A stretch of 57,996 bases of DNA, taken from NCBI GenBank assembly GCA_003576845.1, contig QEVJ01000015.1, positions 1-57,996 of the forward strand. The letters run 5' to 3'. The position numbers and the translations under genes were made by a program. This document shows positions 8,092 through 57,219 of the stretch, in pieces (position 1 is the first letter of the stretch; each line of letters starts with the position of its first letter). The notes beneath the pieces are model-generated. The model worked only from the letters and a program-made list of their open reading frames with translations, made no database searches and was not told the DNA's origin. This stretch comes from Planctomycetota bacterium (GTDB lineage Bacteria > Planctomycetota > Planctomycetia > Pirellulales > PLA5).

Positions 8092-9020
8092 GGCGCGGCG
8101 AACATTTGGCTGGTCGGAGTTTCGAGTTCGCCGAGGTAGCGAATCCGTAGCGACGTGACTTGGATTTCGGGATAGTTCACGTATTCGAGCCGCTTGTAGA
8201 CGAAATCAAGCCAATGGTTCCCCAGCGCCGTGCGGCGAATCCAGAACATGCACGACGCATCGGCCTCGTCGTGGTGGCCTTTGTCGTTGAGCGCGAGAAC
8301 GAGTTCGACGCCGCTACATGCAACATTCGTCGTTAGCGGCAACGTCGTCCCGGCTCGCATCGCGCCTTCCACGCGCGCGACGCCCTCGCCGGTCGCCGTC
8401 GAAAGGCCGAGGTGGAAGGCATGGAAGATCTCGTAGTAGCCGTCGCGTTTCAGGTTGATCGCGTGCTGGCTGGCGTTGATGCCGTAGGTGCTCGTGTCGA
8501 AGTTGGTCACCGACTGCAATGGAATCTGGTGCCAATTGTTATCGTCAGCCACCGTTTGAATGTGCGAGCCGCACATGAAGAGCAGACGTTCGACGGCCTG
8601 CTCGCTCTCACTCGGTTCCCAGCGAAGAGCGATGTAGCCAGGCTCGGCAACATTCTCGTCGTCGCCTTCGAGCGTCTGGTCGCGGAGCAGGAGCAACTCT
8701 TTGCCGTGCGAAATCGCTTCGGGCACGATGTTGTATGCCGGCGTCGGTAGATCGTCGAGGTCGATCACGGCGCTGCCGTCGGCGCGGAGGCGATGCATCT
8801 TGCACTCGCCTTTGCCGGGTTGAACGAGCGTCCCGCCGCCGTCGTACTGGGCGGGCGGAAGCGTACCGTAAGCAATACCGAGTCGCACGACGGGCAACTT
8901 GCCGGGATGCGACGGTCCCTGGACCGGCGGTCGATGATTGACCGGGTCCCCCCGCTCGCGCTGGGCCATGCGCCGCAGCGTGCGAACGTCCGCTTCCGAG
9001 AGAACATATCCGTCGGCCAC
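8088..9020 (-). CDS. Phage tail-tip/baseplate-associated protein, cassette A
   Basis: 310 residues from a GTG at 9020, preceded by GAGG five bases upstream; the homologue in cassette B begins at the corresponding residues. The N-terminal 110 residues (LSEADVRTLRRM, then DPVNHRPPVQG and PGKGECK) are nearly conserved between cassettes, while the C-terminal two-thirds diverge strongly and look like a beta-rich C1q/TNF-type head (TFxLGLSTATGEG, YxIxxAF patterns). A conserved anchor with a variable head is typical of tail appendages. It lies between the fibre gene and the kinase-fold gene, overlapping the latter by four bases. The family is not named with certainty. Confidence 0.6.
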   Translation of the reverse strand: MADGYVLSEADVRTLRRMAQRERGDPVNHRPPVQGPSHPGKLPVVRLGIAYGTLPPAQYDGGGTLVQPGKGECKMHRLRADGSAVIDLDDLPTPAYNIVPEAISHGKELLLLRDQTLEGDDENVAEPGYIALRWEPSESEQAVERLLFMCGSHIQTVADDNNWHQIPLQSVTNFDTSTYGINASQHAINLKRDGYYEIFHAFHLGLSTATGEGVARVEGAMRAGTTLPLTTNVACSGVELVLALNDKGHHDEADASCMFWIRRTALGNHWLDFVYKRLEYVNYPEIQVTSLRIRYLGELETPTSQMFAAP

Positions 9021-30962: not shown

Positions 30963-32987
30963 TTACGCAGCGCCCTTGCTCTTGACCCCGGCGCGGAACT
31001 CGGCGAGCGCGACGCCGAAGTCCCAATAGACGCGCCACGTGACGCCGAGGACGTTGGGATCGGCGTCGAGGCCGAAGAACTCGACCGTCGGCGTCTGCTG
31101 GCCGTTGAGATACGCGATTTCGATTGCCGCCATATCGGCCGGATCGGCCAGCAAGTACCACGCGGTGCTGCTCGCGCCGGTGAGGTTCGTGTTCGACAGC
31201 CACGGCGACGTGATCGGCGTAAAAGCGTTCTGCCAGATGTTGACGCCCGGTGTCTTGGCGGTCGTCGGGCCGAGGACGAACTGCGACGTCATCGCCTCGC
31301 GGGCGGTCGTTTCCAGCGCCGTCGGCACCAGCAGCAATCGCGGCTCGATCATGATCGGGTCGCCGTCTGGCCCCTTCAGATCGCGGAACATCTGCACGGC
31401 CGTTGAAATGCTGGAAAGCGACAGAGCGCTCGGTGCGCCCTCGAAATAGTTCGCACGGGCAGTCGTGAAGAAGCTCGCGCCCGCGGCGGTGGCGTTGAGC
31501 GACGTGAACAGCGCCTTCTCGCGGGCGGTCACCGCCTTGCGTCCCATCTCGGTGGCGCTGCGGGCGAACGCTCCCAGGTCGTCGTTCACCAAGTCTTTGC
31601 GCGTGACCGAAAGCAATGCGCCGCGCGTATCCACTTGCCGCGTGTAAGATTCCTCCGAGAGCGACAAGTGTTTGAGCTCGCCGTCCGGCCCGACCGGCTG
31701 CAACTCGCCGTTGAGGGCCAGCGAGTAGACCGTATGTGCGTGAAAGTTCGTATGCGACCGAGCAGCGGCAATCCGGTCGGCTACCGACGGGGCCGCGTCG
31801 AAGGCCGCTCGCAGCGCCTTGTTGGCGATATTGCCGACAATGCCGGAAAGCTCGCTCGTCGAGAACGCCGCCTGAATCCACTCGCGGGTTCCCGGATCGG
31901 CGTCGATCACGCGGCCCTGCGCCGCGCAAATCTGCTCGGCACACCACCGCAAACCTCGGCGACGATACTTGGTCGCCCGTTCGAGCGTCTGCTCGGGAAA
32001 CTGCTCTTCGCAGGGCACGCCCGCCTGCAAGCAGAGCGCCGCTTCGATGACTTGGGAGGCGACCGGACCACCGTTGCCGCCAGCAACGTGGATGGCAGGA
32101 CCCGATGGCCGACTGGCGCGGAGTACGGCGAGTTCCGCTTTCGTGGCGTCCCAGCCTTCTTTGATCGCTTGCGCCTCGATCTCCGGATGGCGACCGTCGC
32201 ACGACTTGCGGATCGCGTTGATTCGGTCGAGTTCGGCGATCGCCTCGGCGCGAATCTGCACCGTGGCGCTGGGCGGCGGGTCGTCGTTCTCGGCGGGTTT
32301 CGCCGCTTGCAGGTCGTAGAGCGTTCGCAGATTCTTGGTCTGCGATTCGTTCAAGGCATCGGGCGTGAACCCTTGGGCTTCGATCCAAGCGGCGAATTCC
32401 ATATCAAGCTCCTTTTTCGGTTGAGCGGAGGCGGCGATTTGAGCGGACGTGTTGTCGTCCGCGCCGAGCACGACGAAACTGATCTCGCCGAGCGTGGCTC
32501 GCCGGGCGATGTTCACGGGGCCGGCGAACTCACGGCCGTTGGCTTGGGAGGTTTTTCCTTCAGGCACGAACTCGACTTGGTCCGCGCGGGCACCGATCGA
32601 AGATTGCCACGCGAACCCTTTGTCGTTGAGCGCGATGACCTGCTTGGCCTTCGTCGATTCGCCCATCACGTGGCCGGCGACGACGAGTTGGTGGTTTACC
32701 ACGCCGACGCTGTCCGTCTGACCCATCACGAAGTCGACGTCGCGGGTGTGGTCGAGCAGAATCGGCCGGCGCTGACCACCGACTTGCAGCCCCTGTAGGT
32801 CGACGACAACCGGGTAGCGCCAACCGGCCAACTGCATCGGCCCGCCGGTGTACGCCGTCATCGAGAACCGCCGCAGCTTGTTCTGCTCGCCTTCCGGCGC
32901 TGCCGCTTCGAGTTCGACGGCCGATGCCAGCAGGTTCAGCTCGCGCGGCTCAGGCGGCTTGTCGGGTTGGAGTTTCTTCTTCGACAT
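30963..32987 (-). CDS. Prohead protease-major capsid protein fusion
   Basis: 674 residues. The first 190 form a HK97/Mu-like prohead protease domain: H80 in ILLDHTRDVDFVMGQTDS, S129/S130 in AWQSSIGARAD and a downstream strand pair with conserved R and E. Residues about 195-674 resemble a Mu gpT-like/HK97-fold capsid protein with an N-terminal helical delta-like stretch and strands such as NIWQNAFTPITSPWL and FGLDADPNVLGVTWRVYWDF at the end. Such fusions, with the protease releasing itself during maturation, are known in some phage lineages. It overlaps the portal gene's end by 38 bases. Confidence 0.8.
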   Translation of the reverse strand: MSKKKLQPDKPPEPRELNLLASAVELEAAAPEGEQNKLRRFSMTAYTGGPMQLAGWRYPVVVDLQGLQVGGQRRPILLDHTRDVDFVMGQTDSVGVVNHQLVVAGHVMGESTKAKQVIALNDKGFAWQSSIGARADQVEFVPEGKTSQANGREFAGPVNIARRATLGEISFVVLGADDNTSAQIAASAQPKKELDMEFAAWIEAQGFTPDALNESQTKNLRTLYDLQAAKPAENDDPPPSATVQIRAEAIAELDRINAIRKSCDGRHPEIEAQAIKEGWDATKAELAVLRASRPSGPAIHVAGGNGGPVASQVIEAALCLQAGVPCEEQFPEQTLERATKYRRRGLRWCAEQICAAQGRVIDADPGTREWIQAAFSTSELSGIVGNIANKALRAAFDAAPSVADRIAAARSHTNFHAHTVYSLALNGELQPVGPDGELKHLSLSEESYTRQVDTRGALLSVTRKDLVNDDLGAFARSATEMGRKAVTAREKALFTSLNATAAGASFFTTARANYFEGAPSALSLSSISTAVQMFRDLKGPDGDPIMIEPRLLLVPTALETTAREAMTSQFVLGPTTAKTPGVNIWQNAFTPITSPWLSNTNLTGASSTAWYLLADPADMAAIEIAYLNGQQTPTVEFFGLDADPNVLGVTWRVYWDFGVALAEFRAGVKSKGAA

Positions 32988-34437
32988 CCTCGTCCTCTTC
33001 TTCGTCGTCCTCTTCGGGCGCAGGGGCGGCCGGCATGGCGATCGCTTGCGCCGTGGTCAGACCAAGTTCGGTCATCAGCGCGAGTTCCTTCGCGCGCTGG
33101 CGAAGCTGGGTTTCCCAATCGAGACCGCGCCGCGCGTATTCGTCGGCGAGCGTGGTCGTGTGATTCGCTAAGCGCATCGTCTGCGCCGATGCTTCTTTGG
33201 CAGGGTCAACGTGTTCGTGGCCGTCCCAAAACCACTGGTGCGGCCAGTCGGCGATGAAACCGATTCCCGCGGGCAACAGGCCGGGGATCAAGACGGCCTC
33301 GTCGAACCATGCGGCGAGAATGTGGTCGAGCACGACGCATTCGAGATGCGCTTGCTCGACGCGCAGCGACTTGAAGTACGTTTGATGGTCGAGCCGACCA
33401 GAGGCGTAGTTGTACCCCGAGGAATTGCCCGCCGCGATGTTGAACGGGATATTGAGGCACCGGGCAATTTCATTGAGAACTTCCTTCTTGAACTCCGAAT
33501 ACCCGGTCGATGGTTGCTCGGCTTCGAGTTGGGACATCTTCCAGCCGCCGGGCATCGTGACCAGAGCCCGCTTCTCCAGTTCGACGGGCTCGAACGGCTC
33601 CGCGGCATCCGCTTCGCCGTTGGCCGGCGCGTCGGTGTAGAGGATGCCCGCGAAGTCGGCGGCCGTTTCGGCGGCGGCGAGAACTGCGAGCGTGAATCGT
33701 CGAAGCTGCGCGAATAGCGGCAACGCCGGCATGATGTCGGGGATGCCGCGCTGTTGGCCGGGCCGATCGGCACGGAACCAATGGACCACGGCACCGGCCG
33801 GAACGCGGTCGTACTCGCGGGATACGAGCGCCGACGTATCGCCGGGATGCGCTCGCAGCACGTGATACTCGACCGCGTTGCCGAAGGCGTCGAAGCCGAT
33901 CCCGTCAACGGCGTTCCGTGCGAACATGTTGATGTCGGGCGTGCAAACCTGATCGGCCTCGATGAGCCGCAGGTCGAGTTGCACGATGTTGGGCAGCACG
34001 GGGTTGTTCACCAGCACGCCGAACGCCTCGCCGTCTGAGGCGCGTGCCATCCGCATCGTGCGAAGCTTCTCAGCCAAGCCGATCGCCTTGGCCCAGGACA
34101 TGAACGCCAACTCGATGCGCCGGTTGGCTTCGGCGTCCTCCGTGAGCATTTGCAGACGGGGACCGGTTCCGACGACGTCGTTGGCCAGCGTCAGCACGAT
34201 CCCGCGGGCGTAGCTGTTGTTGGCGACCTCGTAGCGGGCGCGGTTCCGCAATAGCCGACGGACCTCGGGGCTATTGGCGGAGTTCGCCGACAGCCCGTCG
34301 GCGTTTGCCCAGTGCCGACGGTTGTCGTCGGTCGTTTGGGCCGCGTCGTAGCGGGCGCGAACGATCCGCACGTCCCGCGTTGGCGGCGCGGCCAGCGGCT
34401 TGGAGCGACGGAACGAATTGGCGATCCACCTGAGCAC
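32950..34437 (-). CDS. Portal protein, lambda type
   Basis: 495 residues from a GTG at 34437 that overlaps the preceding stop by one base. Features match the lambda gpB portal family: RARYEVANNSYARGIVLTLA early on, a WAKAIGLAEKLRTMRMARAS helix, and SGYNYASGRLDHQTYFKSLR near position 370. The acidic tail (EEDDEEEDEDVEEE) overlaps the capsid gene start. A dodecameric portal would sit at the capsid vertex and contact terminase. Confidence 0.85.
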   Translation of the reverse strand: MLRWIANSFRRSKPLAAPPTRDVRIVRARYDAAQTTDDNRRHWANADGLSANSANSPEVRRLLRNRARYEVANNSYARGIVLTLANDVVGTGPRLQMLTEDAEANRRIELAFMSWAKAIGLAEKLRTMRMARASDGEAFGVLVNNPVLPNIVQLDLRLIEADQVCTPDINMFARNAVDGIGFDAFGNAVEYHVLRAHPGDTSALVSREYDRVPAGAVVHWFRADRPGQQRGIPDIMPALPLFAQLRRFTLAVLAAAETAADFAGILYTDAPANGEADAAEPFEPVELEKRALVTMPGGWKMSQLEAEQPSTGYSEFKKEVLNEIARCLNIPFNIAAGNSSGYNYASGRLDHQTYFKSLRVEQAHLECVVLDHILAAWFDEAVLIPGLLPAGIGFIADWPHQWFWDGHEHVDPAKEASAQTMRLANHTTTLADEYARRGLDWETQLRQRAKELALMTELGLTTAQAIAMPAAPAPEEDDEEEDEDVEEETPTRQAA

Positions 34438-34631
34438 TACGTCGTCCCCGGCGGCACGAATTTGTTGAATACGAGGCCACGCGATTTGGATTTGGCGGCC
34501 GTCTTTGACGCCAGATAGCGGTCCGCGGCGATCTGGTCGGGCAGTTTGTGCTGCTCGACCGAACCGGTATCGCCCGAGGCCTTGGCCGGCCCCTGGGCGT
34601 TTTCGCGGATCGTGTCATCGAGTTCGGCCAT
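34437..34631 (-). CDS. Small head-tail joining-like protein (gpW position)
   Basis: 64 residues from ATG 34631 (MAELDDTIRENAQGPAKASG). Positively charged second half, ending RGLVFNKFVPPGTT. Lies between terminase and portal, the place of gpW-like joining proteins in lambda, but sequence likeness to gpW is weak. The frame continues to 34697 without a good start. Confidence 0.45.
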   Translation of the reverse strand: MAELDDTIRENAQGPAKASGDTGSVEQHKLPDQIAADRYLASKTAAKSKSRGLVFNKFVPPGTT

Positions 34632-34740
34632 CAGGTGCTCCCACGTCCGCGATTGAACGCGACCGCCTATTGGGATAAGGACCCGATGTGGTGACAAACT
34701 GACGAACCGAAAACGGAAGAATTAGGACTTGGTGCTATAT

Positions 34741-38247: not shown

Positions 38248-39561
38248 TCACGCGGCCACCTCCGCGGCTGCTCGCCGCTCGGCTTTCCGGCCCGTGAACT
38301 TTTCCCACCGCTGGACGATCACGTCGCAGTACAACGCGTCGAGCTCCATTAGATAGGCGTGACGGCCGGTCTGTTCCGCAGCGATCAACGTTGAACCGCT
38401 CCCGCCGAAGAGATCGAGAACGTTCTCACCGGCCCGTGACGAGTACTGCATCGCGCGAACGGCGAGTTCCGTCGGCTTTTCGGTAAGGTGAACCATCGAC
38501 TGCGGATTCACCTTCTTGATCGACCAGACATCGACGGCGTTATTTGGCCCCAGGAATACATGCGCGGAACCCTCTCGCCAGCAATAAAAGCACCACTCGT
38601 GGTTGCCCATGAAATCTTTTCTGGTCAACACCGGATGTTCCTTCACCCAGATGATCGCCTGCGAGAAGTACAGCCCGTGGCGCTTCAGGACCGGCGGATA
38701 ATTCGCACAGTTCGCGTAGCCTCCCCAGCAATAGAGCGCCCGCCCCGGCAACAGCACGCGGGCGATGTTGCCGAACCAAGCGTCGAGCAGCTTGTCGAAC
38801 GCTTCCTCGGAGACGAAGTCGTTCGCCAACGGACGGTCCTTGGCGCGGAGCTTCTTCTGCGTTGGTTTTGCCTTGCCCGGATGGCGGGCCACGTCGAGAC
38901 CCTGGTGATGCGTCGTGCCCTGAAACGACGACAGGCCAGCGGCAATCGCGTTGTTCGATCGCGGCTCGACTTTGACGTTGTAGGGAGGGTCCGTGTTCAC
39001 CAAATGAACCGCCGCGCCGTCGAGCAGCCGATCGAGGTCTTCCGGCTTGCTGCTGTCGCCGCAGAGAAGTCGGTGGTTACCGAGCACCCAGAGGTCGCCC
39101 GGCCGGGTCGTCGCCTCGTCCGGCGGCGCGGGCACGTCATCCGGATCGCACAACCCGTCCGCGAGGCCGGGGCCGAGCAGCTTCGCCAACTCGTCGGCAT
39201 CGAAGCCCAGTAGCCCGAGGTCGTAGTTGCACGCCTTGAGGTCGGCCAACTCGATCGGCAACAGGTCATAATTCCATTCGGCGAGCGACGCCGTCTGGTT
39301 GTCAGCGATGCGGTATGCCCGAAGCTGCTCCGGCGTCAGATCGGTGGCGACGTGAACCGGCACCTTCTCCAGCCCCAGCTTCTGTGCCGCCTTGTAGCGG
39401 GTGTGGCCGCAGATAATGACGCCGTCGGGATCGACGACGATCGGTTGACGGAAGCCGAATTCTCGGATCGACGCCGCTACGGCGTCGACCGCGCTATCGT
39501 TGATCCGGGGGTTCTTGTCATACGGCCGGATATCAGCCAGCGGACGAAGTTCGATCTTCAT
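38248..39561 (-). CDS. ParB-like plus DNA (N4/N6) methyltransferase fusion
   Basis: 437 residues from ATG 39561, preceded by GAGGAGA. Residues 1-100 are a ParB/Srx-like domain (MKIELRPLADIRPYDKNPRI, then VICGHTRYKAAQKLGLEKVP). Residues about 155-437 are a DNA methylase with catalytic DPPY at 191-194 and a C-terminal SAM motif DLFGGSGSTL (about 384-393), the circularly ordered beta class. This combination is common in phages and protects DNA from restriction or marks packaging/replication. No cognate endonuclease is adjacent. Confidence 0.85.
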   Translation of the reverse strand: MKIELRPLADIRPYDKNPRINDSAVDAVAASIREFGFRQPIVVDPDGVIICGHTRYKAAQKLGLEKVPVHVATDLTPEQLRAYRIADNQTASLAEWNYDLLPIELADLKACNYDLGLLGFDADELAKLLGPGLADGLCDPDDVPAPPDEATTRPGDLWVLGNHRLLCGDSSKPEDLDRLLDGAAVHLVNTDPPYNVKVEPRSNNAIAAGLSSFQGTTHHQGLDVARHPGKAKPTQKKLRAKDRPLANDFVSEEAFDKLLDAWFGNIARVLLPGRALYCWGGYANCANYPPVLKRHGLYFSQAIIWVKEHPVLTRKDFMGNHEWCFYCWREGSAHVFLGPNNAVDVWSIKKVNPQSMVHLTEKPTELAVRAMQYSSRAGENVLDLFGGSGSTLIAAEQTGRHAYLMELDALYCDVIVQRWEKFTGRKAERRAAAEVAA

Positions 39562-39602
39562 GTCATTCTCCTCAGAAAAGCGTGCGGTTGTTGCCGTGTA
39601 TC

Positions 39603-39803
39603 TCACCGGCTGGAAGCGAATGCTGGCGGTTCGTCGCGATGATCTGGTCGATGAGCCGGAATGCACGTTCCGCCGAATAGCAATGCGAGCAGCACCGTGA
39701 ACCAAGCTACGTGCCAGAAGAACCGTTCGAGCCCCTTGGCGGTCGGCACGACGATGCGATTCCAGCGGTCGTGCGCAAGTTCGGATTCATTTCGCGGTGA
39801 CAT
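39603..39803 (-). CDS. Small membrane protein (possible holin-like)
   Basis: 66 residues, ATG preceded by GGAG at nine bases. One strong membrane helix at about residues 29-49 (FFWHVAWFTVLLALLFGGTC) with a charged N-terminus and a short acidic/basic tail. A single-helix protein downstream of replication genes might be a holin or pinholin, but no endolysin was recognised, so this is only a possibility. Confidence 0.45.
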   Translation of the reverse strand: MSPRNESELAHDRWNRIVVPTAKGLERFFWHVAWFTVLLALLFGGTCIPAHRPDHRDEPPAFASSR

Positions 39804-40131
39804 GGGTTATCTCCAGTTCGAGTTCGGACAACGAAAAAAAACTATCTCTGACTTGGCGATTGTTCCCGCACGCATCTCCTTTCCCAGCTTGCCAGGAAGG
39901 AACCATGCGACTTCTTTCTTCTTTCACCCCCTCCCTCGCGCACACACGGATTTCCTCGCGTACGCGCGTGCGCGGGCGGGCGTGCGTGAAAGAGAGAAGG
40001 AAGAGAGAGAGTATGTATATTTCCCGTATTTCTTCGCATGACTTCTTTCCCACTTCTTTCCCACTTCGTTCAACATCCTTCGCAGCCCAATCACGTCGTT
40101 GAGGCCAACTTCTTTCCCACGGGCACGTCGC
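39804..40131. other. GA/TC-skewed intergenic region with repeats
   Basis: About 330 bases between the membrane peptide and the replication gene. It contains a low-complexity patch (GCGCGTGCGCGGGCGGGCG into AGAGAGAAGGAAGAGAGAGA, about 39960-40010) and the start of the ACTTCTTTCCC repeat cluster. Frames on both strands are low complexity and not convincing as genes. Confidence 0.5.
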
Positions 40132-40148
40132 TCAGCCACTTCTTTCCC
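40041..40148. repeat. Four-copy ACTTCTTTCCC repeat cluster
   Basis: Exact 11-mers ACTTCTTTCCC at 40041-40051, 40052-40062 (directly tandem), 40108-40118 and 40138-40148; a variant ACTTCTTTCTT lies at 39910. The last copy falls over the end of the primase-like gene. Possible iterons, operators or translated KEV-type repeats. Confidence 0.6.
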
Positions 40149-42417
40149 CGTCGCCGTCACCAACCAAGCGATAGACTCGCTGGGGACGGCCGGCGGTCGA
40201 CTGCATCGCGGTCGTCACGTCGCCTTGCTGTTCGAGCGTGGTGATCAGCTCGTGTAGCGTCTTGGCGTCAACGCGCATCCGCTTGAGCAGGGCGCTGTGG
40301 GAGAGTTGTCGGTCCGGCGCTTCGCGGAGCTTACGGAGCAGCTTCAGGCACTCGGCGTGGAACGGGTTCTCGGCCACGTGACTGTGGGCCATGAACAACA
40401 TCCGCCGCGTCTGGTGGAGGATGAAGTCGGTGGCCCATCGCACCGCCGCGGCGTCGATCCGCGGCGACTGGTGGTTGGCGCTGGCGGCGTATAGCAGCGC
40501 CAGCTTGCGAATCTGCTCGGGCACCCGCCCCCATACGGTCGTGCCCACCGGATCGCCACGGCTTTCGGCGAGAGAATACTCGGCCTCGGCTGCCTCGCGC
40601 CCGTCGGTGATCAACCGGCGGGCCTCCTCATCGGCTTCGATTATGAGTGGTTGAGGATGGAAGCGTTCGAGATTGCCGGTACCGGGATTAAAATCTGCCC
40701 ACCACTGCGCGGTCTCCATGACGTGCGGCGGCGGGTCGATGATGCCCGGCTCCTGGCCGGCGTTGCGTGGACCGCTTTCGACGATCAGCATCCGTGCGAA
40801 AAACCCGTTGGTGAGCATCCGCTCGGACAGCGCCGAGTAGTAGTGCGTCGGGATCGCCGTGCCGTACACGACGAGACACGGCTGGTCGATCACGCCGGGT
40901 GCTTCCTTGCCGGCCTTGCGCCGCATGGGATAGATGCTGTTGGCTGCCGAGTACATCGTCAGCAGCGTGCCGAGGATGTTCTCGTGGCGGGCGTCGTGCG
41001 CCTTGTTGATCGACTGCAGCAGCCCGTCGATCTCGTCCGTCTGAAACAGCAGTGCCGGGCTGAGGAATAGCGAATCCTGGATGCCCTCGCCCGATGCGAA
41101 CTTTTCGCCGAGCGAACCGACCAGCCCGATCCGGTGCAAAATGTGCGTGTTGACTTTGCGCGGCCAATCCTTGCCGACCGATGAATACGCCAGCGCCAGC
41201 ACGTAGAGGTTCGTCCGATTGTCCCCCTGGTCACGGACCTTGCGCCCGGCGAGCACGGCCTGCAGCGACAATGCGCCACAGAACGCCAACGCCAGGTTCG
41301 GATAGGGCGCTGTCGTCAGGCAGTGGTCCATCACTTCTGAGATGAAACCGGGGACGCGACAAAGCTCGACGGGGAGCGGGCCAGGGTCGGGGTGTTCGGG
41401 AGCTCGCGTGGGGATCGGTTGGTGCGTGCCGTTGCAGCGAAAGTGCGAGAGATCGACGTCGGCGTCATCGCCGGTGTCGCCGTATCCGTCGGCGCGGAGC
41501 GCGGCGGCCGCCGCCGCGAAGTCGCCGGCGTGTTCGAGCAACGTGTAGACCGTGAACGGGGCGTAGGCCTTGTCCGGCTCGAACGGGGCGGCGTTCGACG
41601 AAAACACGTAGAACACGCCGCCGCGGAGCGTGGCGCTCCAGCCCTGGTTCTTGCCTGGCCGACGCCAGTATTCGTTCTCGCCGCCGCGGACCAGTTGCCA
41701 GTCGTGGTGTTCGAGCAGGGCGCGGACGTCGCCCCGCTCGTTGAAATCGTCACCAGGACGACCGTTCGCCGCCGATAGCGCGCGCCGCCGCTCGACCGGC
41801 GGCAGCGCCTCGTTGAGCGCATATGCCGCCTCGATCAGGATCGCATGCTCGGCTTCAGTCAGCACGGGCAAGTCGTCGAACGAGCCCTGCTCGATGACAT
41901 ATCCGGGTGTGGGCGCACAGAGAAATAGCCCGCCGTCGCCGCGCGTTTCGATGAGCGTGAGGGTGATCTCGTAGCGCCCAGCGACGAGGTGCGGCACAAG
42001 CCGCTTGCCGTGGATCACGACTGGTTCCGCGCTGGGCGCCGCGATTACCCGTTGCGCCAGCTTTCGATTGCCAGGAACTTCCGCTTCGCAGCGGTAGATT
42101 GCATGTCGGCCGCCCGACTGTGACCGCTCAATGACGAGGCGATCGAGCAGGCCGGGCGACTCGCTTTCCACGAGTTGCCGCCACGGCTCGAACATCTCGC
42201 CGCCGTTGTCGAAGTCGATCATTTCCAGGTTGCCGGACACGGTGCCCGCCAGAACGCAAACGGGCGGGGCGTCGGCGAACCACGCCGTCACCTGCCGTTC
42301 GGTCGGCAAGCGGCGCTGGTACTGTTTCCAGCCCGCCAGCGCCGGGCGCTTTTCCGCGAGGATCGCGGGCAGCACGCACAGACCGGAGCGCAGGTAGGAG
42401 GTGGCGACGTCGATCAT
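40132..42417 (-). CDS. Replication protein: PrimPol domain plus DUF3987-like helicase
   Basis: 761 residues from ATG 42417, two bases after the helicase stop. The N-terminus has the archaeo-eukaryotic primase/polymerase (Prim-Pol) pattern: WKQYQRRLPTERQVTAWF, then the metal-binding DFD (about 68-70, MIDFDNGGE) and a later conserved H in GGRHAIYRC. The C-terminal part has the DUF3987 pattern (AFCGALSLQAVLAGRKVRD; YSSVGKDWPRKVN; LLFQTDEIDGLLQSI), a DNA helicase-like ATPase with a degenerate P-loop. It would prime and unwind phage DNA. The C-terminal HTH-like end (LRKLREAPDRQLSHSALLKR) may bind DNA. Confidence 0.75.
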   Translation of the reverse strand: MIDVATSYLRSGLCVLPAILAEKRPALAGWKQYQRRLPTERQVTAWFADAPPVCVLAGTVSGNLEMIDFDNGGEMFEPWRQLVESESPGLLDRLVIERSQSGGRHAIYRCEAEVPGNRKLAQRVIAAPSAEPVVIHGKRLVPHLVAGRYEITLTLIETRGDGGLFLCAPTPGYVIEQGSFDDLPVLTEAEHAILIEAAYALNEALPPVERRRALSAANGRPGDDFNERGDVRALLEHHDWQLVRGGENEYWRRPGKNQGWSATLRGGVFYVFSSNAAPFEPDKAYAPFTVYTLLEHAGDFAAAAAALRADGYGDTGDDADVDLSHFRCNGTHQPIPTRAPEHPDPGPLPVELCRVPGFISEVMDHCLTTAPYPNLALAFCGALSLQAVLAGRKVRDQGDNRTNLYVLALAYSSVGKDWPRKVNTHILHRIGLVGSLGEKFASGEGIQDSLFLSPALLFQTDEIDGLLQSINKAHDARHENILGTLLTMYSAANSIYPMRRKAGKEAPGVIDQPCLVVYGTAIPTHYYSALSERMLTNGFFARMLIVESGPRNAGQEPGIIDPPPHVMETAQWWADFNPGTGNLERFHPQPLIIEADEEARRLITDGREAAEAEYSLAESRGDPVGTTVWGRVPEQIRKLALLYAASANHQSPRIDAAAVRWATDFILHQTRRMLFMAHSHVAENPFHAECLKLLRKLREAPDRQLSHSALLKRMRVDAKTLHELITTLEQQGDVTTAMQSTAGRPQRVYRLVGDGDGERSG

Positions 42418-42419
42418 GT

Positions 42420-44081
42420 TCAAAACGGGATGTCGTCAGGTTCGTAACCAACAAATGCACCGGCAGGGATCGCCTCCGGCAGCGGGCCGAGCTTGTAGGC
42501 GGTGATCTTGTCGTACTTCTCGCCGACGACCGTGCGGACGGTGATGCGTTCGGTGTGGGCCAGGCCGCCGGCCTCGGCGATCTCGACAGCCCGCTCGGCC
42601 GTGTCCGGCACGGCATCGGGCGTGCGCCGTCGCCACCACGCCGCAGCCTTCTGGCGGGCGTATCCTGCGTGCTCAACGCAAATGAACTCGCTCTGCCAGT
42701 GGTTCAGGCCGACGCAGTAGCTCACGCGCATCGTCCTGGGCGCGTCGGCCGCTGCGCCTCGCTTCGTGTGGACGCTGTAGGAAACGTCGCGGACCTCGTA
42801 CTCGGTATCCGTAATCTGACCCGAGAGAATCCCCGCCTCGGTCGCCTTGGCGTCGTGCTTCTTCCGGTTCGGCGGCGGAAACTCGTATCCGCATTCGGGG
42901 CAGTGAGCATAGCCGGTGGCGATGATCGCCATACACTCGGGACATTCCTTCATCGGCGCTTCACCGTCGCCGTTGGGTGTCGACTTGATCGTCAGGTTGT
43001 CGACTGGCCCGTGCCGCATTACGTTGCCGCCGAAGTCCAACACGAGGCAGTTCTGCTTTTCGGGATGGAGACGGAAGCCGCGACCAACCATCTGGTAATA
43101 CAATCCCGGTGACATCGTCGGCCGCACCAGCGCGACGCAGTCGATATGCGGCGCGTCGAAACCGGTGGTCAGCACGTTGACGTTGCAGAGGTATTTCAGT
43201 TCGCCGCGACGAAAGCGGCCGAGTACCGCGTCGCGCTCCTTGGCCGGCGTCTCGCCGGTGACGAACCCGCACTCGATGCCGTGCTCGTCGGCCAGGACAC
43301 GAACGATATGCTCGCCGTGCTTGATGCCGCTGGCGAAGATCAACACGGCGCGGCGATCGGCGGTGTAGCCAACTGTTTCACCGCATGCCGCCGCGACCAG
43401 CCGTTCGTCGTCCATGAGGTTCTCGACCTCGTCGGCGACGAACTCGCCGCCACGAACGTGCAGACGCTCGAAGTCGGCTTTGTTGATGCCGGCTTTCGTA
43501 ACTAACGGGCAAAGAAAGCCGTCGCGGATCAATTCGCGGACGCCGACCTCGAAGCAGATGTGATTGAGGAAACCGTCGGGCGTGCAGATCGGCCCCGTCT
43601 TCATCCGAAACGGGGTCGCCGTGAATCCGATGATCCGCACGTTCGGATTGAGCACCTTGGCGTCGGCCAAAAACTGCCGATACATTCCGTCGCCTTCCGG
43701 CGGGATGAGATGGGCCTCGTCCACCATGACAAGATCGAAGGCGTCGAGTTCGCAGGCCCGGCGGTAGACGGACTGGATGCCGGCGACGATCACCGAATGC
43801 GTCGTGTCGCGGCGCTTCAGACCGGCGGAATAGACACCGAACTCAACTTCTGGGCAGACGAGCCGCAGCTTGTCGGCCGTCTGTTCGAGCAGTTCCTTCA
43901 CGTGCGCGAGGATGAGAACGCGGCCGCCCCACGCGCCGACGGCGTCCTTGCAGATCGAAGCCATAATCGGTGTTTTGCCGCCGGCGGTCGGCACGACTGC
44001 GCAGGGATTGTCGTCCCGATCGCGCAGGTGCCTGTAAACCGCCTGCTTCGTCTGTTCCTGATAGGGGCGAAGCGTAAGCAT
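42420..44081 (-). CDS. SF2 DEAD/DEAH-box helicase
   Basis: 553 residues from ATG 44081; the frame to 44087 would start with TTG. Walker A PTAGGKTP (31-38), DEAH (121-124), SAT-like FTATPFR (about 160), and motif VI VGRGFRLHP are in order. A four-Cys zinc knuckle (CPECMAIIATGYAHCPECG) lies in the C-terminal third. The layout is the RadD/phage-type helicase. It could act in replication fork restart or recombination with the neighbouring Sak4-like ATPase. One continuous leftward operon. Confidence 0.85.
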   Translation of the reverse strand: MLTLRPYQEQTKQAVYRHLRDRDDNPCAVVPTAGGKTPIMASICKDAVGAWGGRVLILAHVKELLEQTADKLRLVCPEVEFGVYSAGLKRRDTTHSVIVAGIQSVYRRACELDAFDLVMVDEAHLIPPEGDGMYRQFLADAKVLNPNVRIIGFTATPFRMKTGPICTPDGFLNHICFEVGVRELIRDGFLCPLVTKAGINKADFERLHVRGGEFVADEVENLMDDERLVAAACGETVGYTADRRAVLIFASGIKHGEHIVRVLADEHGIECGFVTGETPAKERDAVLGRFRRGELKYLCNVNVLTTGFDAPHIDCVALVRPTMSPGLYYQMVGRGFRLHPEKQNCLVLDFGGNVMRHGPVDNLTIKSTPNGDGEAPMKECPECMAIIATGYAHCPECGYEFPPPNRKKHDAKATEAGILSGQITDTEYEVRDVSYSVHTKRGAAADAPRTMRVSYCVGLNHWQSEFICVEHAGYARQKAAAWWRRRTPDAVPDTAERAVEIAEAGGLAHTERITVRTVVGEKYDKITAYKLGPLPEAIPAGAFVGYEPDDIPF

Positions 44082-44139
44082 GTCCAAGCGTTTGCCAATG
44101 AGGTCAGGTTTGCAGCTGCGTCGCCAGATTGGTGCTCCG

Positions 44140-44601
44140 TCACGAACGCTTCCACGGCGGCGTGCTACTCGTCGCCGCCGCGACCGCGGTGGCCAACGAA
44201 GCCGAATCCTTCTTGGCGTAACCCTTGATTTCGTTGGTGATCTCGCCTGTATCCGCCCGCTTCTTGCAGCGGACGCTGATCACCAGCGGCAAGTTATGCA
44301 GATCGACGCTGTCCTTCGGCGCGAGCACGCCGACGGCGCGGCAGATGGCCGACAACTCGCCCTGCGCAATTTTGCGGGCCTGCTCGCTCGGGTTGTCGAG
44401 GTTGAGCCGCGCCCAGACCATGCGGTTCTTGAACTCGCCCTCGATGATCTGGAACGTCAGCTGCAGATAGCTGCCGTTGCCCGACTTCGTGGGCTTCATT
44501 TCGCTTTCGGTAACGACCACGACGTACTTGCCCGCGGGTAGAGGGTCGAATTCGCTGGCCGGTTCGACTTGGTTGGCATCGAATCCACTGAGATCAGCCA
44601 T
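44140..44601 (-). CDS. DUF669 phage protein
   Basis: 153 residues. The start MADLSGFDANQVEPASEFDP, then LPAGKYVVVVTESEMKPTKS and LQLTFQIIEGEFKNRMVWAR follow the DUF669 pattern. In phages DUF669 genes lie in the replication/recombination module next to Sak4-type ATPases, and a single-stranded DNA-binding role has been proposed for some. The C-terminus is flexible (STPPWKRS). Confidence 0.75.
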   Translation of the reverse strand: MADLSGFDANQVEPASEFDPLPAGKYVVVVTESEMKPTKSGNGSYLQLTFQIIEGEFKNRMVWARLNLDNPSEQARKIAQGELSAICRAVGVLAPKDSVDLHNLPLVISVRCKKRADTGEITNEIKGYAKKDSASLATAVAAATSSTPPWKRS

Positions 44602-44602
44602 G

Positions 44603-45379
44603 TTATTGGGCTCCTGGGGCTGGTTGATTGGTCATCGCGTTGACGAACGCCGGCCACGACAGCGGCAATTCGTCGGTGATTCCGTACCGGTTTTTGGCGA
44701 CGCACGATGGGCCGCCGACGCAACGCAGAATGCGTTCGCCGCCGTCTTTGCCGATCGCGTGGGCGATCGTCCGTTTGCGGTTGAAGCCGGCGTCCTCGGA
44801 CTGCGTGCGCACCTTCCGTGTGGCGAACAGCACGGCGTCGCACCACTCGCTCACGAGCGCGGCAGCATGTTTGTGCAAGCGCGGGCTGTAGCGGTCGTAG
44901 GCCGACGACTCGGGGTCCTCGAACCGTTCGACCTTCGAGTGCGCGATCAGCAGCACGACCATGCCGCGCTGGTTACGCAGCGCGTTGAGGTGGTCGATGA
45001 GTTCGCGCCAGAACGTCAGGGCGTGCGTGTAGCCTTTCGAGTAGCCACCGTCGACTTTCTCGATCGACGAGACGTTGTGCTGGATGCACAGCTTGTCCCA
45101 CACGAGCCGTTCCAACCAATCTAGCGAGTCGATCACGATGGTCTCGCGGTCGTGCGACTCCGTTCGCAGTTCCGTGAGCGCTGCGATCACGTCTTCGTAA
45201 CACCGGGCGAGCGGAAACCGCACGCAGTCGATCTCGTCGAGACCGTCTTCCGTCTGGATGAAGATCGGATTCGGCGCCTGCGCGCCGAGCGTCGATTTGC
45301 CGATGCCTTCGACGCCATACAGCAACACGCGCGGTGGCTTCGATGCTCGCCCGCGTTCGACTTGAGCCAGCATGCTCAC
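44603..45379 (-). CDS. Sak4-like RecA-fold ATPase (AAA_24)
   Basis: 258 residues from GTG 45379 overlapping the preceding stop by four bases. Walker A GVEGIGKS (22-29), Walker B-like IVIDSLDWLERL (81-92) and an arginine-containing GKDGGERIL region near the end. The family (phage nucleotide-binding protein/AAA_24, Sak4 type) includes single-strand annealing recombinases. Position between DUF669 and a small unknown gene fits a recombination module. Confidence 0.75.
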   Translation of the reverse strand: MSMLAQVERGRASKPPRVLLYGVEGIGKSTLGAQAPNPIFIQTEDGLDEIDCVRFPLARCYEDVIAALTELRTESHDRETIVIDSLDWLERLVWDKLCIQHNVSSIEKVDGGYSKGYTHALTFWRELIDHLNALRNQRGMVVLLIAHSKVERFEDPESSAYDRYSPRLHKHAAALVSEWCDAVLFATRKVRTQSEDAGFNRKRTIAHAIGKDGGERILRCVGGPSCVAKNRYGITDELPLSWPAFVNAMTNQPAPGAQ

Positions 45380-45678
45380 GCGGCAGCCTCCTTAGGTTGA
45401 TGATCGGTTCGGGTAATGCGTTCAATTCGGAACGAGTCCGGTCCAAGTTCGCGTTCGAGGAAACGGACGAAGAGGCGGTTCAGATCTCGTCCGACCAGCG
45501 TGCCCGCGTGAATCACGCAGGCACGGCTGGCCGGATGGAGATAGTGGGCCGCGTCGAGCCGGGTCTGCGACTCGCCGTGCAACGCCTCACAGCCCCACAC
45601 CGCCAAGAGCAATGCGGCCTCGACATCTTCCACGGACACGTTCTCGTCGAACTTGTAGCGGTAGAGGTCGGTGGCCAT
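45376..45678 (-). CDS. Small unknown early protein
   Basis: 100 residues from ATG 45678 with GAGGAG at seven bases; the frame to 45738 has no such site. Helical with VEAALLLAVWGCEALHGESQ and ALPxLDRxxVRFLERELGP-like segments, no known motif. First gene of the leftward early operon, with the regulatory site at 45714-45729 lying 35 bases upstream. Confidence 0.6.
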   Translation of the reverse strand: MATDLYRYKFDENVSVEDVEAALLLAVWGCEALHGESQTRLDAAHYLHPASRACVIHAGTLVGRDLNRLFVRFLERELGPDSFRIERITRTDHQPKEAAA

Positions 45679-45713
45679 GATTGGCTCCTCGTACTGTTGG
45701 ACATCGCCTACAT

Positions 45714-45729
45714 GGTTAACTACCCGGTC
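45714..45729 (-). promoter_or_regulatory. 16-bp regulatory site upstream of the early operon
   Basis: The minus strand reads GACCGGGTAGTTAACC, an exact match to 49499-49514 on the plus strand. It lies 35 bases before the ATG at 45678 and contains the palindrome GTTAAC. Distance and orientation relative to the gene are like those of the second copy, which suggests a shared operator or promoter. Confidence 0.65.
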
Positions 45730-45752
45730 CGCGTCCAAACTGACGACGCGGA

Positions 45753-46367
45753 TTACACGTAGTCCTGCAGCGAACGATCCTCAAAGCGGCGTCGTAGCTT
45801 GCCGAGCCAGGAATTGAGCGTCGTGCGCGGAATGCCCATGTCGCGAGCGACCTGGGAGATCGAGTCGTGCTTGAGCCGCTCGGCGAACTCACGCAACCTC
45901 TCGTCCGAGACGTCCGCCATGCATGCAGCGACATCCAGTTTCAGGTCCGCAAGGTCTTGTGGACTTCGCTTACTTGCGCTGCGGCACCCGTTGCGTTGGG
46001 AGTCGATCGTGTCCGCCAGCTCTACGCGGCCTTCGCCCTTGTCGCCAACGCCGATGTGGATGGACGAGACGCGGCGGTGGTCGCGTTTCGCCGCCAAGTT
46101 GTCCCGTATCATGTTGGCGATGTATCGCCGGACCACCCGTGCGACGAAAGCCTTCCAACGCGGGTCGCCCGCGTCGGCGGCATGAAGATGCCTGGCCAGC
46201 TTGAGGTACAGCTGCTGCTCGACTTCGTCTCGATCCTGGCGTTTGAAGCCGAATCGGCCGGCGAACTGCCGGGCGCTTTTCCGCACATAACCTTCCGTGA
46301 ATGGGTCGATGCCTTTACGAGCTCGCGACGATCCATCCGAACCTCCGAACCTTGCTTTCGTATGCAT
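45753..46367 (-). CDS. Sigma-70-like regulator
   Basis: 204 residues from ATG 46367, preceded by GGAG at nine bases. The N-terminus has an ECF sigma-2-like helix pair (YVRKSARQFAGRFGFKRQDR; VEQQLYLKLARHLHAA; WKAFVARVVRRYIANMIRDN). The end carries a sigma-4 HTH (HDSISQVARDMGIPRTTLNS, then WLGKLRRRF). It probably directs RNA polymerase to phage promoters. It is set off from the downstream early genes by the regulatory site at 45714. Confidence 0.7.
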   Translation of the reverse strand: MHTKARFGGSDGSSRARKGIDPFTEGYVRKSARQFAGRFGFKRQDRDEVEQQLYLKLARHLHAADAGDPRWKAFVARVVRRYIANMIRDNLAAKRDHRRVSSIHIGVGDKGEGRVELADTIDSQRNGCRSASKRSPQDLADLKLDVAACMADVSDERLREFAERLKHDSISQVARDMGIPRTTLNSWLGKLRRRFEDRSLQDYV

Positions 46368-46449
46368 GCCACTATCTCCGACGGGTGATGCTTCCCGCCG
46401 TGCCCAGTTGCACGACGGCACCCGCCGCCGGAATTGCAGCAATGCGCAC

Positions 46450-46489
46450 AAAAAAACCTGCGGCGCGACGTAAGTCGCTTTGCCGCAGG
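46450..46489 (-). terminator. Rho-independent terminator
   Basis: Minus-strand hairpin CCTGCGGC (with a 3-base AAA bulge) GCGAC / GTCGC GCCGCAGG around TTAC, followed by TTTTTT. It would end transcripts of the gene pair 46550-48659 before the sigma-like gene. Confidence 0.75.
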
Positions 46490-46514
46490 TCGTTACGAAG
46501 TCGGATTTCCGGTC

Positions 46515-46545
46515 TTGCACTTGCGCGAAAACGGCGCAAGTGCAA
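46515..46545. promoter_or_regulatory. Perfect 12-bp inverted repeat
   Basis: TTGCACTTGCGC / GCGCAAGTGCAA around seven bases, directly after the stop of 46550-47506 and before the terminator. Without a T run it is not a simple terminator, so an operator or RNA-stability element for the sigma-like gene is possible. Confidence 0.5.
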
Positions 46546-46549
46546 TTTG

Positions 46550-47506
46550 CTAGGTTCGTCGTCCTCGGCTGATTGGTCCCTTGAACTTCATGATTTGGTC
46601 CAAATCTTCGGTCATCTCCCAGTACAGGCGAAGCTCCCGCGCATCCTCGTCATCATGGCAGCGGGAGAAGTCGTAGGCCTCCAATCCCGCAAGGTCACAG
46701 AACTTCTTCTTGAAGGGGCGTTTCAGCAAATCCGGCTCTCCGTTCCGATCCATCGTATCGAAGGCATGGTTGCGAGCGGCTTGAAGGAACTTCACCACTT
46801 CCTTCGTCAACGCCTCGATCTTGGCGGCGATATCCGCCCGCTTCTTGGACGTGCGCTTCTTCTGAGGCGCCGATCCCATTCCCGCATCGATGATGCGTCC
46901 CTCAACGTCGTCTACGTCAAGCGAAAGGTGGTCGCCGTCGAGCGACACCACGGCGTCCAGTGAGATCACCAGATTGCCTGTTGCTTCACGCCAACGCCCA
47001 GCTCCGACTTCCGTCGGGGCAAATAGAATCGCTTTCGGATGGTGATTTAGTTTTTGGACGGCTGCCGCCACTTGATGACGCCGAAAGGCACGCGCGAACC
47101 AGATTTCGCGAGATCGGCCGGCCCAGTTGGCCTTGCCAACCTGCCAAAGCTGTCCCACGACGCGTTCCTGAATGGATATGTTGACGCCGGAAAAACATGC
47201 GCCGAGGAACGCCGCCGTATCGATCTCCCATCGCGCGAGCCGGTGGACGGGAGCTTTCGTGACGCCGCAGTAACGACAGTGGATGTATCCGTGCCGGGCA
47301 CCGGATTGGTCGGAAATGAACTCGACGCGACACCGTTCTCCGCACTCGGTGCAGTTTGTCGCGCCGGCGCTCGCCGTCGGACGTACTACGCCAAGACCGC
47401 AAAGATTGTCGAATATGTCCCGCAGTTCGCCGGACGCCTCCTCCGCGCAGATCACCGGCGGGTTAATCTCCCACCGTGACAGGACTTGGCGAAGTTGTTC
47501 CGACAC
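46550..47506 (-). CDS. Unknown zinc-ribbon protein in the LexA operon
   Basis: 318 residues from GTG 47506, preceded by GGAAG six bases upstream. Two WEIN/WEID motifs (RWEINP and ARWEIDTAAFLGA) are shared with the upstream 398-residue gene. An N-terminal zinc-ribbon-like CTECGERC...CRYC precedes them, and a Lys-rich stretch (KKRTSKKRADIAAKIEALTK) and charged helices end the protein. Overlaps the upstream gene by 44 bases. No family recognised. Confidence 0.5.
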   Translation of the reverse strand: MSEQLRQVLSRWEINPPVICAEEASGELRDIFDNLCGLGVVRPTASAGATNCTECGERCRVEFISDQSGARHGYIHCRYCGVTKAPVHRLARWEIDTAAFLGACFSGVNISIQERVVGQLWQVGKANWAGRSREIWFARAFRRHQVAAAVQKLNHHPKAILFAPTEVGAGRWREATGNLVISLDAVVSLDGDHLSLDVDDVEGRIIDAGMGSAPQKKRTSKKRADIAAKIEALTKEVVKFLQAARNHAFDTMDRNGEPDLLKRPFKKKFCDLAGLEAYDFSRCHDDEDARELRLYWEMTEDLDQIMKFKGPISRGRRT

Positions 47507-48659
47507 GATCGATCTTCCATCGCTTGAGGTACTTTTGGATCAGTTCGACGCGCTCCGGGCGGGCGTTGCGTAGGCTGCAAGATCGGGGGAATGTCACGTC
47601 AAAGCTCTGCTGGCCCGGCTTGCGATCTCCGTGCGGAAGAAACTCGAAACAGAACGTGACCTGCGTGACGTTCCATTCGGACAGCGGCATCTCGTCGAGA
47701 TTGATACATTCCGCGATGGCTTTGTGGATATTGTCATCGGGGTCATCGTCAATCTCGACGTGGACGCGTCGACCGCTGTGCTTGGCGGAAAGCCGCATCT
47801 TGTGAATGCGGACTCGCACTCGATCTTCCGCATCCGTATTTAACTTAAATGCCACATCTTTTAGTTGATTTAACTCGTATGCTGCATCCGGCTCATGCGT
47901 CCCGAGTTCCCAATGCAGAATCGCGTCGGCAAAGATGACTTCCAGCCGCTCCTTTATCGGCTTCGGCAGCTTGGCGAACGTCTCAAGCGTTCCTTCGTCG
48001 CGGTCGTAGGCGAACACAACAAGCATTGTTTGACGAATCGCCTCCGTTGTTAGTCTTCTGTGCTCGTTATGCCGAGTGATGTTCTGCACGAAATCATCAG
48101 GACGAGCGAAGAAGTAGTCAACGGAACCGCGGGTGAGCGTCTCGACGGTGCAATCCTTCCCTCTCCCCTGCGACTTCAACAGCGATGAGATGGCGTCTTC
48201 CAACTTCTCCTTCGCCTCGGCTGACGTGTCCGGCGCGTTCTTCGGCAGATCGTTTCGTTTCCGCCACCATGACAGCTGATCCACCTGATAAATGGTCTGC
48301 GCCTTATCGAAAACCTCCCGACATTTCAGCCAGGCCCACATCGCCAAACCGTAGGGACACAAGCCTTCGGGAACGAGAGACGCTAGGTCCGGCACGTCGC
48401 AATGCGGCCCGGCCTCCAGTAGGGCGTCGAAGCCGCTCGGGCAACCGAGGTCGAAGACGCTCCGAAGAACGCTTTCGATGTCGTTCGATTGGTCCAGCGG
48501 CAATTCGCCGATGTAGTCGAGGAGCGGGTCGATCTCCCATTTCTTCAAGTCGCCCCAGTGTGGATCGAAATCGCCGTGACCAAGCTCGATAAAGAAAGCC
48601 TGGAGCAGCTCGTTGGGAACCATCCGCAGGACGGTTGGAATCGAGAATTGCCGTGTCAT
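47463..48659 (-). CDS. Unknown protein in the LexA operon
   Basis: 398 residues from ATG 48659, with AAGGAG in the 17-base gap after the LexA stop. An N-terminal helix set (MVPNELLQAFFIELGHGDFD) leads to KKWEIDPLLDYIGEL, the same WEID motif as in the next gene. The centre has SWWRKRNDLPKNAPDTSAEA and a basic end. No enzyme motif was found. Together with LexA and the next gene it forms one damage-linked operon. Confidence 0.5.
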   Translation of the reverse strand: MTRQFSIPTVLRMVPNELLQAFFIELGHGDFDPHWGDLKKWEIDPLLDYIGELPLDQSNDIESVLRSVFDLGCPSGFDALLEAGPHCDVPDLASLVPEGLCPYGLAMWAWLKCREVFDKAQTIYQVDQLSWWRKRNDLPKNAPDTSAEAKEKLEDAISSLLKSQGRGKDCTVETLTRGSVDYFFARPDDFVQNITRHNEHRRLTTEAIRQTMLVVFAYDRDEGTLETFAKLPKPIKERLEVIFADAILHWELGTHEPDAAYELNQLKDVAFKLNTDAEDRVRVRIHKMRLSAKHSGRRVHVEIDDDPDDNIHKAIAECINLDEMPLSEWNVTQVTFCFEFLPHGDRKPGQQSFDVTFPRSCSLRNARPERVELIQKYLKRWKIDRVGTTSPSPVTVGD

Positions 48660-48676
48660 CAGCCGGTTTACTCCTT

Positions 48677-49333
48677 TCAAGCGTGTCTTACCGCGATCAC
48701 CTTTCCCAAGATCCGAAATTCTGTCTCCGGACCCACGAGCATCGGTTTGTAGCGACGGTTTTCCGCTCGCAGTTCGATGTGATCACCATGTATGAAGAGC
48801 CGCTTCACGGTCGCCTCGTCGTCGATGAGCGCCACGACGATCTCGCCGCTCTCGGCAATCGGCTGCTGGCGCACGATGACGACGTCTCCCTCGCGCATGC
48901 CGGCACCGATCATGCTGTCGCCGGAAACAGTCAGGGCGAAGCAGCGACCCCGATTGGTGACGCTCATTTCGACCAAGACCTCGCCGATGCGGTTCTCTTC
49001 CGCCAACATCGCCGGTCCGGCTTTCACGGTTCCGACCAACGGCACCGCGATGAGAAAGTCGATGGTCCGCCGCGGCTCTCGCAGGATCGTCAGACTTCGG
49101 GCCTTTAGCGGCTCTCGTTTTACGAAACCCTTGCGTTCCAACTGCACAATCAATTGGTGCGCGCTGGCGGCGGTGATTCCGAGTAACGCTCCGAGCTCGT
49201 TCATCGTAGGCGGGTATCCCTTCCGCGCGATGTGGTTCTTAACTTCCGTCAGCGCCCGTTGCTGCGCGTCGGTGATGTCGTCTTCCGTCGGACGCCCGCG
49301 ATGTTCTCGATTTGCGGGCATTCGACTTCCCAT
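48677..49333 (-). CDS. LexA-type repressor (S24 autoprotease)
   Basis: 218 residues; a second start at 49321, with GGGAAG just before it, is also plausible. The N-terminal HTH (PPTMNELGALLGITAASAHQ) matches LexA's winged helix. The autocleavage site is A105-G106 (VKAGPAM); catalytic S140 (VSGDSMIGAGM) and K177 (EATVKRL) are in place. It would repress phage or host genes until DNA damage triggers RecA-assisted self-cleavage. Being the head of an operon with two unknown genes, it would co-regulate them. Confidence 0.85.
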   Translation of the reverse strand: MGSRMPANREHRGRPTEDDITDAQQRALTEVKNHIARKGYPPTMNELGALLGITAASAHQLIVQLERKGFVKREPLKARSLTILREPRRTIDFLIAVPLVGTVKAGPAMLAEENRIGEVLVEMSVTNRGRCFALTVSGDSMIGAGMREGDVVIVRQQPIAESGEIVVALIDDEATVKRLFIHGDHIELRAENRRYKPMLVGPETEFRILGKVIAVRHA

Positions 49334-49498
49334 TCGGATTAGTGCTTACAGGCGTCAGTATGGGCTACTGGAATCTACCACAGACAGGGAGGTTAACACA
49401 ACATCTTGGGCCGAATTCGTCGCAAGTCGTTTTTTAGACACAACTTACAATCTGCCAACAATGACTCCCCGCGACATGGTTTCGTCAGTTTTTGGGGC

Positions 49499-49514
49499 GA
49501 CCGGGTAGTTAACC
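49499..49514 (+). promoter_or_regulatory. 16-bp regulatory site upstream of the recombinase operon
   Basis: GACCGGGTAGTTAACC lies 58 bases before the first + strand gene at 49573, the inverted counterpart of 45714-45729. Further toward LexA, GGTTAACACA at 49391-49400 shares the core GGTTAAC and sits about 60 bases upstream of the LexA start. LexA and the sigma-like protein are candidate binders. Confidence 0.6.
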
Positions 49515-49572
49515 GAGTATCGCCTTCGATTCTGGTTTCCTCGATTTCCCAGCTCGCATCGAGCCGTCCGCC

Positions 49573-57137: not shown

Positions 57138-57219
57138 CCTGATTCCTTTGCCCAAAAGCCCGATTCGTCAGCGATCTGCCGAAGAAACGAGTTCTTAGTT
57201 CCGTTGTCCGTTGGACTTG

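What the first reader, a model, noticed from the sequence alone, without database searches (positions are those of the whole stretch)
45714..49514. Identical 16-bp site, inverted, before the early operon and the recombinase operon
GACCGGGTAGTTAACC occurs on the minus strand at 45714-45729, 35 bases before the early operon start, and on the plus strand at 49499-49514, 58 bases before the recombinase operon. Each is oriented towards its own gene. A core GGTTAAC also occurs at 49391, about 60 bases before the LexA start. A 16-bp exact match is not expected by chance. It brackets the block holding a sigma-like regulator and a LexA repressor, so it is probably a promoter or operator that ties replication and recombination control together.
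Basis: partly seen in the sequence, partly recalled or inferred. Interest (0 to 1): 0.66.

Follow-up and report, generated by a model that had tools for sequence, protein, structure and literature searches.

The report
Prophage sigma factor's private promoter
The repeated 16-bp site is the core of a promoter that occurs three times in this prophage and nowhere else in its host genome, and it is most likely read by a sigma factor that the prophage itself encodes, so one viral protein would switch on replication, the integrase operon and head assembly together.

Summary
The 16-mer is real: exact at 45714-45729(-) and 49499-49514(+), absent elsewhere in the 7.05-Mb genome even with 2 mismatches. 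It is the downstream part of a 38-bp bipartite element, CGTCAGTTT-N7-GACCGGGTAGTTAACC. The relaxed pattern matches only these three places genome-wide. The window is a tailed prophage with a serine integrase in a planctomycete. Related prophages carry the element at the same places: directly after the stop codon of a sigma-like gene, before the integrase operon, and in several before the portal operon. Within each phage the copies match, while the spacer does not. Between phages they change together with the sigma protein (r 0.74-0.75), not with neighbouring proteins. Different prophages in one host carry different versions. The sigma protein folds as an ECF sigma factor. Best explanation: dedicated promoters of a prophage-encoded ECF-like sigma factor (not shown biochemically). 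The GGTTAAC core near lexA is coincidental, and LexA appears to use another operator. Wolbachia phage WO has a distant sigma with its own three-copy element. New variant of a known kind (cf. SigN of plasmid pBS32).

The parts
45708..45745 (-). P_early: CGTCAGTTTGGACGCGGACCGGGTAGTTAACCATGTAG, promoter of the early/replication operon, directly after the sigma stop codon; contains the 16-mer 45714-45729
49483..49520 (+). P_rec: CGTCAGTTTTTGGGGCGACCGGGTAGTTAACCGAGTAT, promoter of the small ORF-DUF2924-serine recombinase operon; contains the 16-mer 49499-49514
34667..34704 (-). P_late: CGTCAGTTTGTCACCACATCGGGTCCTTATCCCAATAG, third copy, before a small head gene (start about 34631) and the portal gene
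45753..46367 (-). prophage ECF-like sigma factor (204 aa), proposed reader of the three promoters
   Evidence: PHROG 1740 and weak Pfam hits, AlphaFold model and Foldseek, family scans, co-evolution
45376..45678 (-). first early gene (100 aa, unknown function)
   Evidence: conserved behind sigma in relatives
38248..45379 (-). early/replication genes: Sak4-like annealing protein, SSB, helicase, primase/polymerase, ParB-methyltransferase
30963..34631 (-). small head gene, portal, head protein/maturation protease (late operon)
48677..49333 (-). LexA-like S24 repressor (start perhaps 49321)
49338..49349 (.). candidate operator of the LexA-like repressor (ATTAGTGCTTAC; relatives ATCAGCGCTAAT), different from the 16-mer
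49373..49401 (-). probable host-type lexA promoter TTGTGT-17-GTAGAT; its spacer holds the GTTAACC 'core'
   Evidence: sequence comparison with L014 and L136
49573..51866 (+). small ORF, DUF2924 protein, large serine recombinase

Best explanation
The 16-mer is the -10 side of a 38-bp promoter recognised by the prophage's own ECF-like sigma factor (45753-46367). The -35 side is CGTCAGTT, at 17-nt spacing. Three copies place the replication operon, the integrase operon and the head operon under this one sigma factor. When sigma is made, host core RNA polymerase is redirected to the three promoters. Shown by computation: the three copies and their uniqueness in the genome, their conserved positions in relatives, their co-evolution with the sigma protein, and the ECF fold. 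Inferred: the exact -35/-10 and start-site assignment, actual sigma activity, and what triggers sigma synthesis (perhaps loss of LexA-like repression, as for SigN of pBS32).
For: The relaxed pattern finds only three places in 7.05 Mb, all in this prophage, with a reversed-pattern control of 0. The element follows the sigma stop codon in many relatives and recurs 294-378 nt (514-519 nt in two) before DUF2924 in most phages where both are present. Pairing of the two copies within phages: block 17-32 identity 0.81 against 0.58 shuffled, 0 of 5000 as high; spacer 10-16 shows no excess, which argues against recent duplication. Mantel tests against the sigma protein: P_early r 0.74, P_rec r 0.75, p < 0.0002; P_rec given recombinase still 0.72, recombinase given sigma -0.03. 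Late copies before portal in three further phages follow each phage's own version, e.g. CGACAA in L147/L161. The sigma model's best PDB matches are ECF sigma factors.
Against: No transcription-start or binding data. The window protein is below the curated cut-offs of Pfam Sigma70_r2 and TIGR02937. The -35 lacks the GGAAC of many ECF promoters. Some relatives break the pattern: no element after sigma in L013, L015 and L027; no clear partner in L018, L019, L032 and L153; no late copy found in the phage of L144/L160. P_early lies beside the sigma gene, so linkage alone could explain its correlation, but P_rec is several kb away.
Confidence: 0.85

Rival explanations
1. The 16-mer is an operator of the LexA-like repressor or of one of the two unknown proteins between lexA and sigma.
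For: The site lies next to these genes, and one GTTAACC lies upstream of lexA.
Against: The 38-bp element is not a dyad. It is present in phages where no lexA relative was detected on the stretch held (L138, L140, L144, L147), and in the last three no u405 or u318 either. A different near-palindrome, ATCAGCGCTAAT, recurs at lexA in the relatives examined. The two-block layout with fixed 17-nt spacing fits a promoter.
Confidence: 0.05
2. The sites are promoters of a host sigma factor (housekeeping or alternative), not of a phage one.
For: Phage early promoters are commonly host-read (own knowledge).
Against: No other copy in the host genome. Prophages in one host carry different versions. Variation follows the phage sigma protein.
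Confidence: 0.05
3. The sigma-like protein acts as an activator that binds the site but does not replace sigma in RNA polymerase.
For: The C-terminal part of the family also resembles several HTH families.
Against: Both sigma-2-like and sigma-4-like domains are predicted and the best fold matches are ECF sigma factors. Two blocks at -35/-10 distance co-vary with it.
Confidence: 0.04
4. The inverted copies are recombination sites used to flip the lexA-sigma block.
For: Inverted exact repeats 3.8 kb apart next to a serine recombinase.
Against: In L008, L009, L016 and L144 the two copies are in direct orientation. A third copy exists. The spacers have diverged, and copies within most phages are not identical.
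Confidence: 0.01

Closest known systems
SigN (ZpdN) of plasmid pBS32, Bacillus subtilis (PMC6751061)
   Same: ECF-like sigma factor on a mobile element with many copies of a dedicated promoter before the element's own operons; linked to LexA and DNA damage.
   Different: No sequence membership claimed. SigN activates its own gene, whereas here no copy lies upstream of sigma and one lies directly behind it. Here the regulon is a tailed prophage's replication, integrase and head operons. LexA control of this sigma is not shown.
Lytic-phage sigma factors such as SPO1 gp28 and T4 gp55 (own knowledge)
   Same: Phage-encoded sigma factors that redirect host RNA polymerase to phage-specific promoters.
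   Different: Those serve middle or late genes of lytic phages in a cascade; here a temperate phage appears to use one promoter type for early, integrase and late operons.
Sigma-70 subunit of Wolbachia phage WO (a sigma-70 subunit is noted in PMC3173496)
   Same: Distant homologue (hhalign probability 99, E 7e-18). Its gene is also followed directly by a bipartite element that recurs three times in the phage record.
   Different: Element sequence entirely different (GCGGACGAATT...TCAnCGTACATATA); no promoter role has been described in what was read.

Membership tests
ECF sigma factors (sigma-70 group 4) | two-domain sigma2 + sigma4 architecture without sigma1/sigma3 | tested here: met
   AlphaFold model with two helical domains; best Foldseek matches are ECF sigma factors such as SigL, SigE and SigH of M. 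tuberculosis
ECF sigma factors (sigma-70 group 4) | sequence match above curated cut-offs | tested here: inconclusive
   window protein matches TIGR02937 at E 1.4e-6 but 28 bits against a 42.9 cut-off; 28 of 29 family members match at E <= 0.01; the family profile finds ECF SigE chains
ECF sigma factors (sigma-70 group 4) | -35 element with GGAAC (common but not obligatory in the group) | tested here: not met
   conserved -35 block is CGTCAnTT
ECF sigma factors (sigma-70 group 4) | activity as a sigma subunit | not testable with these tools
   needs in vitro transcription
SigN-like mobile-element sigma regulon | several operons of the element share a dedicated promoter absent from the host | tested here: met
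   three copies only, all in the prophage
SigN-like mobile-element sigma regulon | sigma gene repressed by LexA | tested here: inconclusive
   candidate operators lie near lexA; none assigned to sigma in the window, and a terminator-like hairpin separates sigma from the lexA block
SigN-like mobile-element sigma regulon | sigma activates its own gene | tested here: not met
   no copy of the element upstream of sigma
LexA box | short dyad shared by lexA and other damage genes | tested here: not met
   element is not a dyad and is absent at lexA; a different site recurs there

The most novel reading that the evidence does not exclude
A broad group of serine-recombinase prophages, reaching from Planctomycetota to Wolbachia phage WO, is run by self-owned ECF-like sigma factors, each with a private promoter that co-evolves with it. 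Prophages sharing a host would then be transcriptionally insulated from one another.
Probability: 0.65. Interest if true: 0.75.

Novelty: new variant of a known kind. Interest (0 to 1): 0.62.

Why it matters
It would explain how an uncharacterised but widespread group of prophages switches from silence to replication, integrase expression and assembly with one protein. It provides natural sigma-promoter pairs that have diverged in step, so specificity could be tested by swapping them. For phage WO, whose regulation is largely unknown, it gives three precise predicted start sites that existing Cappable-seq data of Wolbachia (PMC12558409) could check directly.

Tried and rejected
LexA operator: no dyad, and a different motif recurs at lexA. 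The GGTTAAC core at 49391: chance level for GTTAAC, and it lies in the spacer of a probable host-type lexA promoter, which the simple consensus scan did not list. The 57387 3-mismatch match: lacks the CGTCA block and is not in the relaxed scan. Host promoter: no host copies. Rfam on the window: no match. The WO element in IMG/VR: no exact match. Literature: nothing found on promoters of sigma factors of planctomycete phages. A second sigma-bearing contig in the same host (L173) has a different sequence after its sigma gene, and no partner copy was found on its 12 kb with the versions tried.

Full report
Observation. The 16-mer GACCGGGTAGTTAACC is exact at 45714-45729(-) and 49499-49514(+) and occurs nowhere else in the 7.05-Mb genome with up to two mismatches. 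The shared sequence is longer than reported: CGTCAGTTT precedes the 16-mer by 7 nt at both places, and shuffled windows never gave this. A search of the whole genome for CGTCAGTT-N11-CGGGTNNTTANCC with up to two mismatches finds three places, all in this prophage, and none for the reversed pattern.

Setting. The window is a tailed prophage: DUF2924 protein and large serine recombinase on the right; LexA-like repressor, two proteins of unknown function and a sigma-like protein; then Sak4-like protein, SSB, helicase, primase, methyltransferase, terminase, portal, head and tail genes on the minus strand. Relatives of the first early gene occur in 17 of 146 searched genomes, nearly all from the same order. 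The named genomes with the closest LexA relatives are mostly planctomycetes such as Rhodopirellula rubra.

Conservation. In relatives the element follows the stop codon of the sigma gene directly. When each phage's own element is slid along its locus, the best other place is usually 294-378 nt before DUF2924 on the same strand as the recombinase operon (514-519 nt in L024 and L030). By my reading this holds clearly in 17 of the 22 phages where both stretches are present, with L136 a tie in the right place; L018, L019, L032 and L153 gave no clear partner, and L035 and L023 are cut by the contig end. In L008, L009 and L016 I disregarded a reverse-strand match that overlaps the element itself. 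Late copies before portal were found in the phages of L138, L143 and L147, each following the version of its own phage, but not in that of L144.

Co-evolution. In 13 phages with both copies aligned, the block 17-32 is 81% identical between the two copies of one phage against 58% when phages are shuffled (0 of 5000 as high); the spacer shows no excess. The two copies are therefore not recent duplicates but are held alike by something in the phage. Distances between elements follow distances between sigma proteins (r 0.74 for the early copy in 20 phages, 0.75 for the recombinase copy in 14). Controlling for the recombinase leaves 0.72, while the recombinase adds nothing once sigma is controlled for. 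The recombinase copy lies several kb from sigma, so linkage does not explain it. Different prophages of one host carry different versions (G087: L141/L142 against L143; G001: L144 against L147), which points away from a host factor.

The sigma protein. Sequence matches are weak for the window protein, but 28 of 29 family members match the sigma-70 ECF superfamily model. The AlphaFold model (mean pLDDT 75) shows two helical domains, and the best PDB matches by fold are ECF sigma factors. The relative orientation of the domains is uncertain (pTM 0.39).

Mechanism. I propose -35 = CGTCAG, a 17-nt spacer, -10 at about TAGTTA in GGGTAGTTAAC, and a start about 7 nt later, at the conserved TA. This assignment is inferred from spacing and conservation. 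One sigma factor would then switch on replication, the integrase operon and the head genes. How sigma itself is switched on is open: a terminator-like hairpin and a hairpin covering its ribosome-binding site precede it, and the LexA-like repressor may act upstream. The LexA-like repressor probably uses ATCAGCGCTAAT-like sites next to its own gene.

Known relatives. The closest working analogue is SigN of pBS32, an ECF-like sigma factor of a plasmid with a dedicated promoter before many plasmid operons, itself repressed by LexA (PMC6751061). Phage WO of Wolbachia carries a distant homologue; a sigma-70 subunit of WO has been noted before (PMC3173496). Directly after its gene lies a bipartite element that recurs twice more in the 87.7-kb record, before two other gene blocks. 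That is the same layout with an unrelated sequence, and it makes the idea testable in a well-studied symbiont.

Noticed in passing
window 46370-46550 (-): The sigma gene leader holds a terminator-like hairpin (CCTGCGGC...GCCGCAGGTTTTTTT) and a long hairpin that pairs the ribosome-binding site, conserved in relatives L014, L033, L136, L137 and L141; a different structured leader is conserved in L008, L016, L035, L138-L140, L143 and L144. No Rfam match in the window.
   Followed up: partly
L005-L007, L014, L036-L040, L136, upstream of lexA: Near-palindrome ATCAGCGCTAAT, often twice, with TGCTAGCA near or between the copies: probable operators of the LexA-like repressor.
   Followed up: partly
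L175 (MN180251), positions 8485(-), 9521(+), 15139(+): Wolbachia phage WO has a three-copy bipartite element, one copy directly after its sigma-like gene.
   Followed up: partly
L173 (G000 contig C176): A second prophage-like contig in the same host with a 35% identical sigma gene followed by a different sequence (CGTGAATTC...GGTACTTGAGGGATAACA).
   Followed up: partly
window 55806-57155 (-): C-5 cytosine DNA methylase beside a 517-aa protein without a Pfam match (54298-55851), perhaps a restriction-modification pair at the prophage end.
   Followed up: no
L155, L158, L161 and window, about 30 nt upstream of the late element: A further conserved stretch resembling CTAGATGTAGCAC precedes the late copy in four phages.
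   Followed up: no
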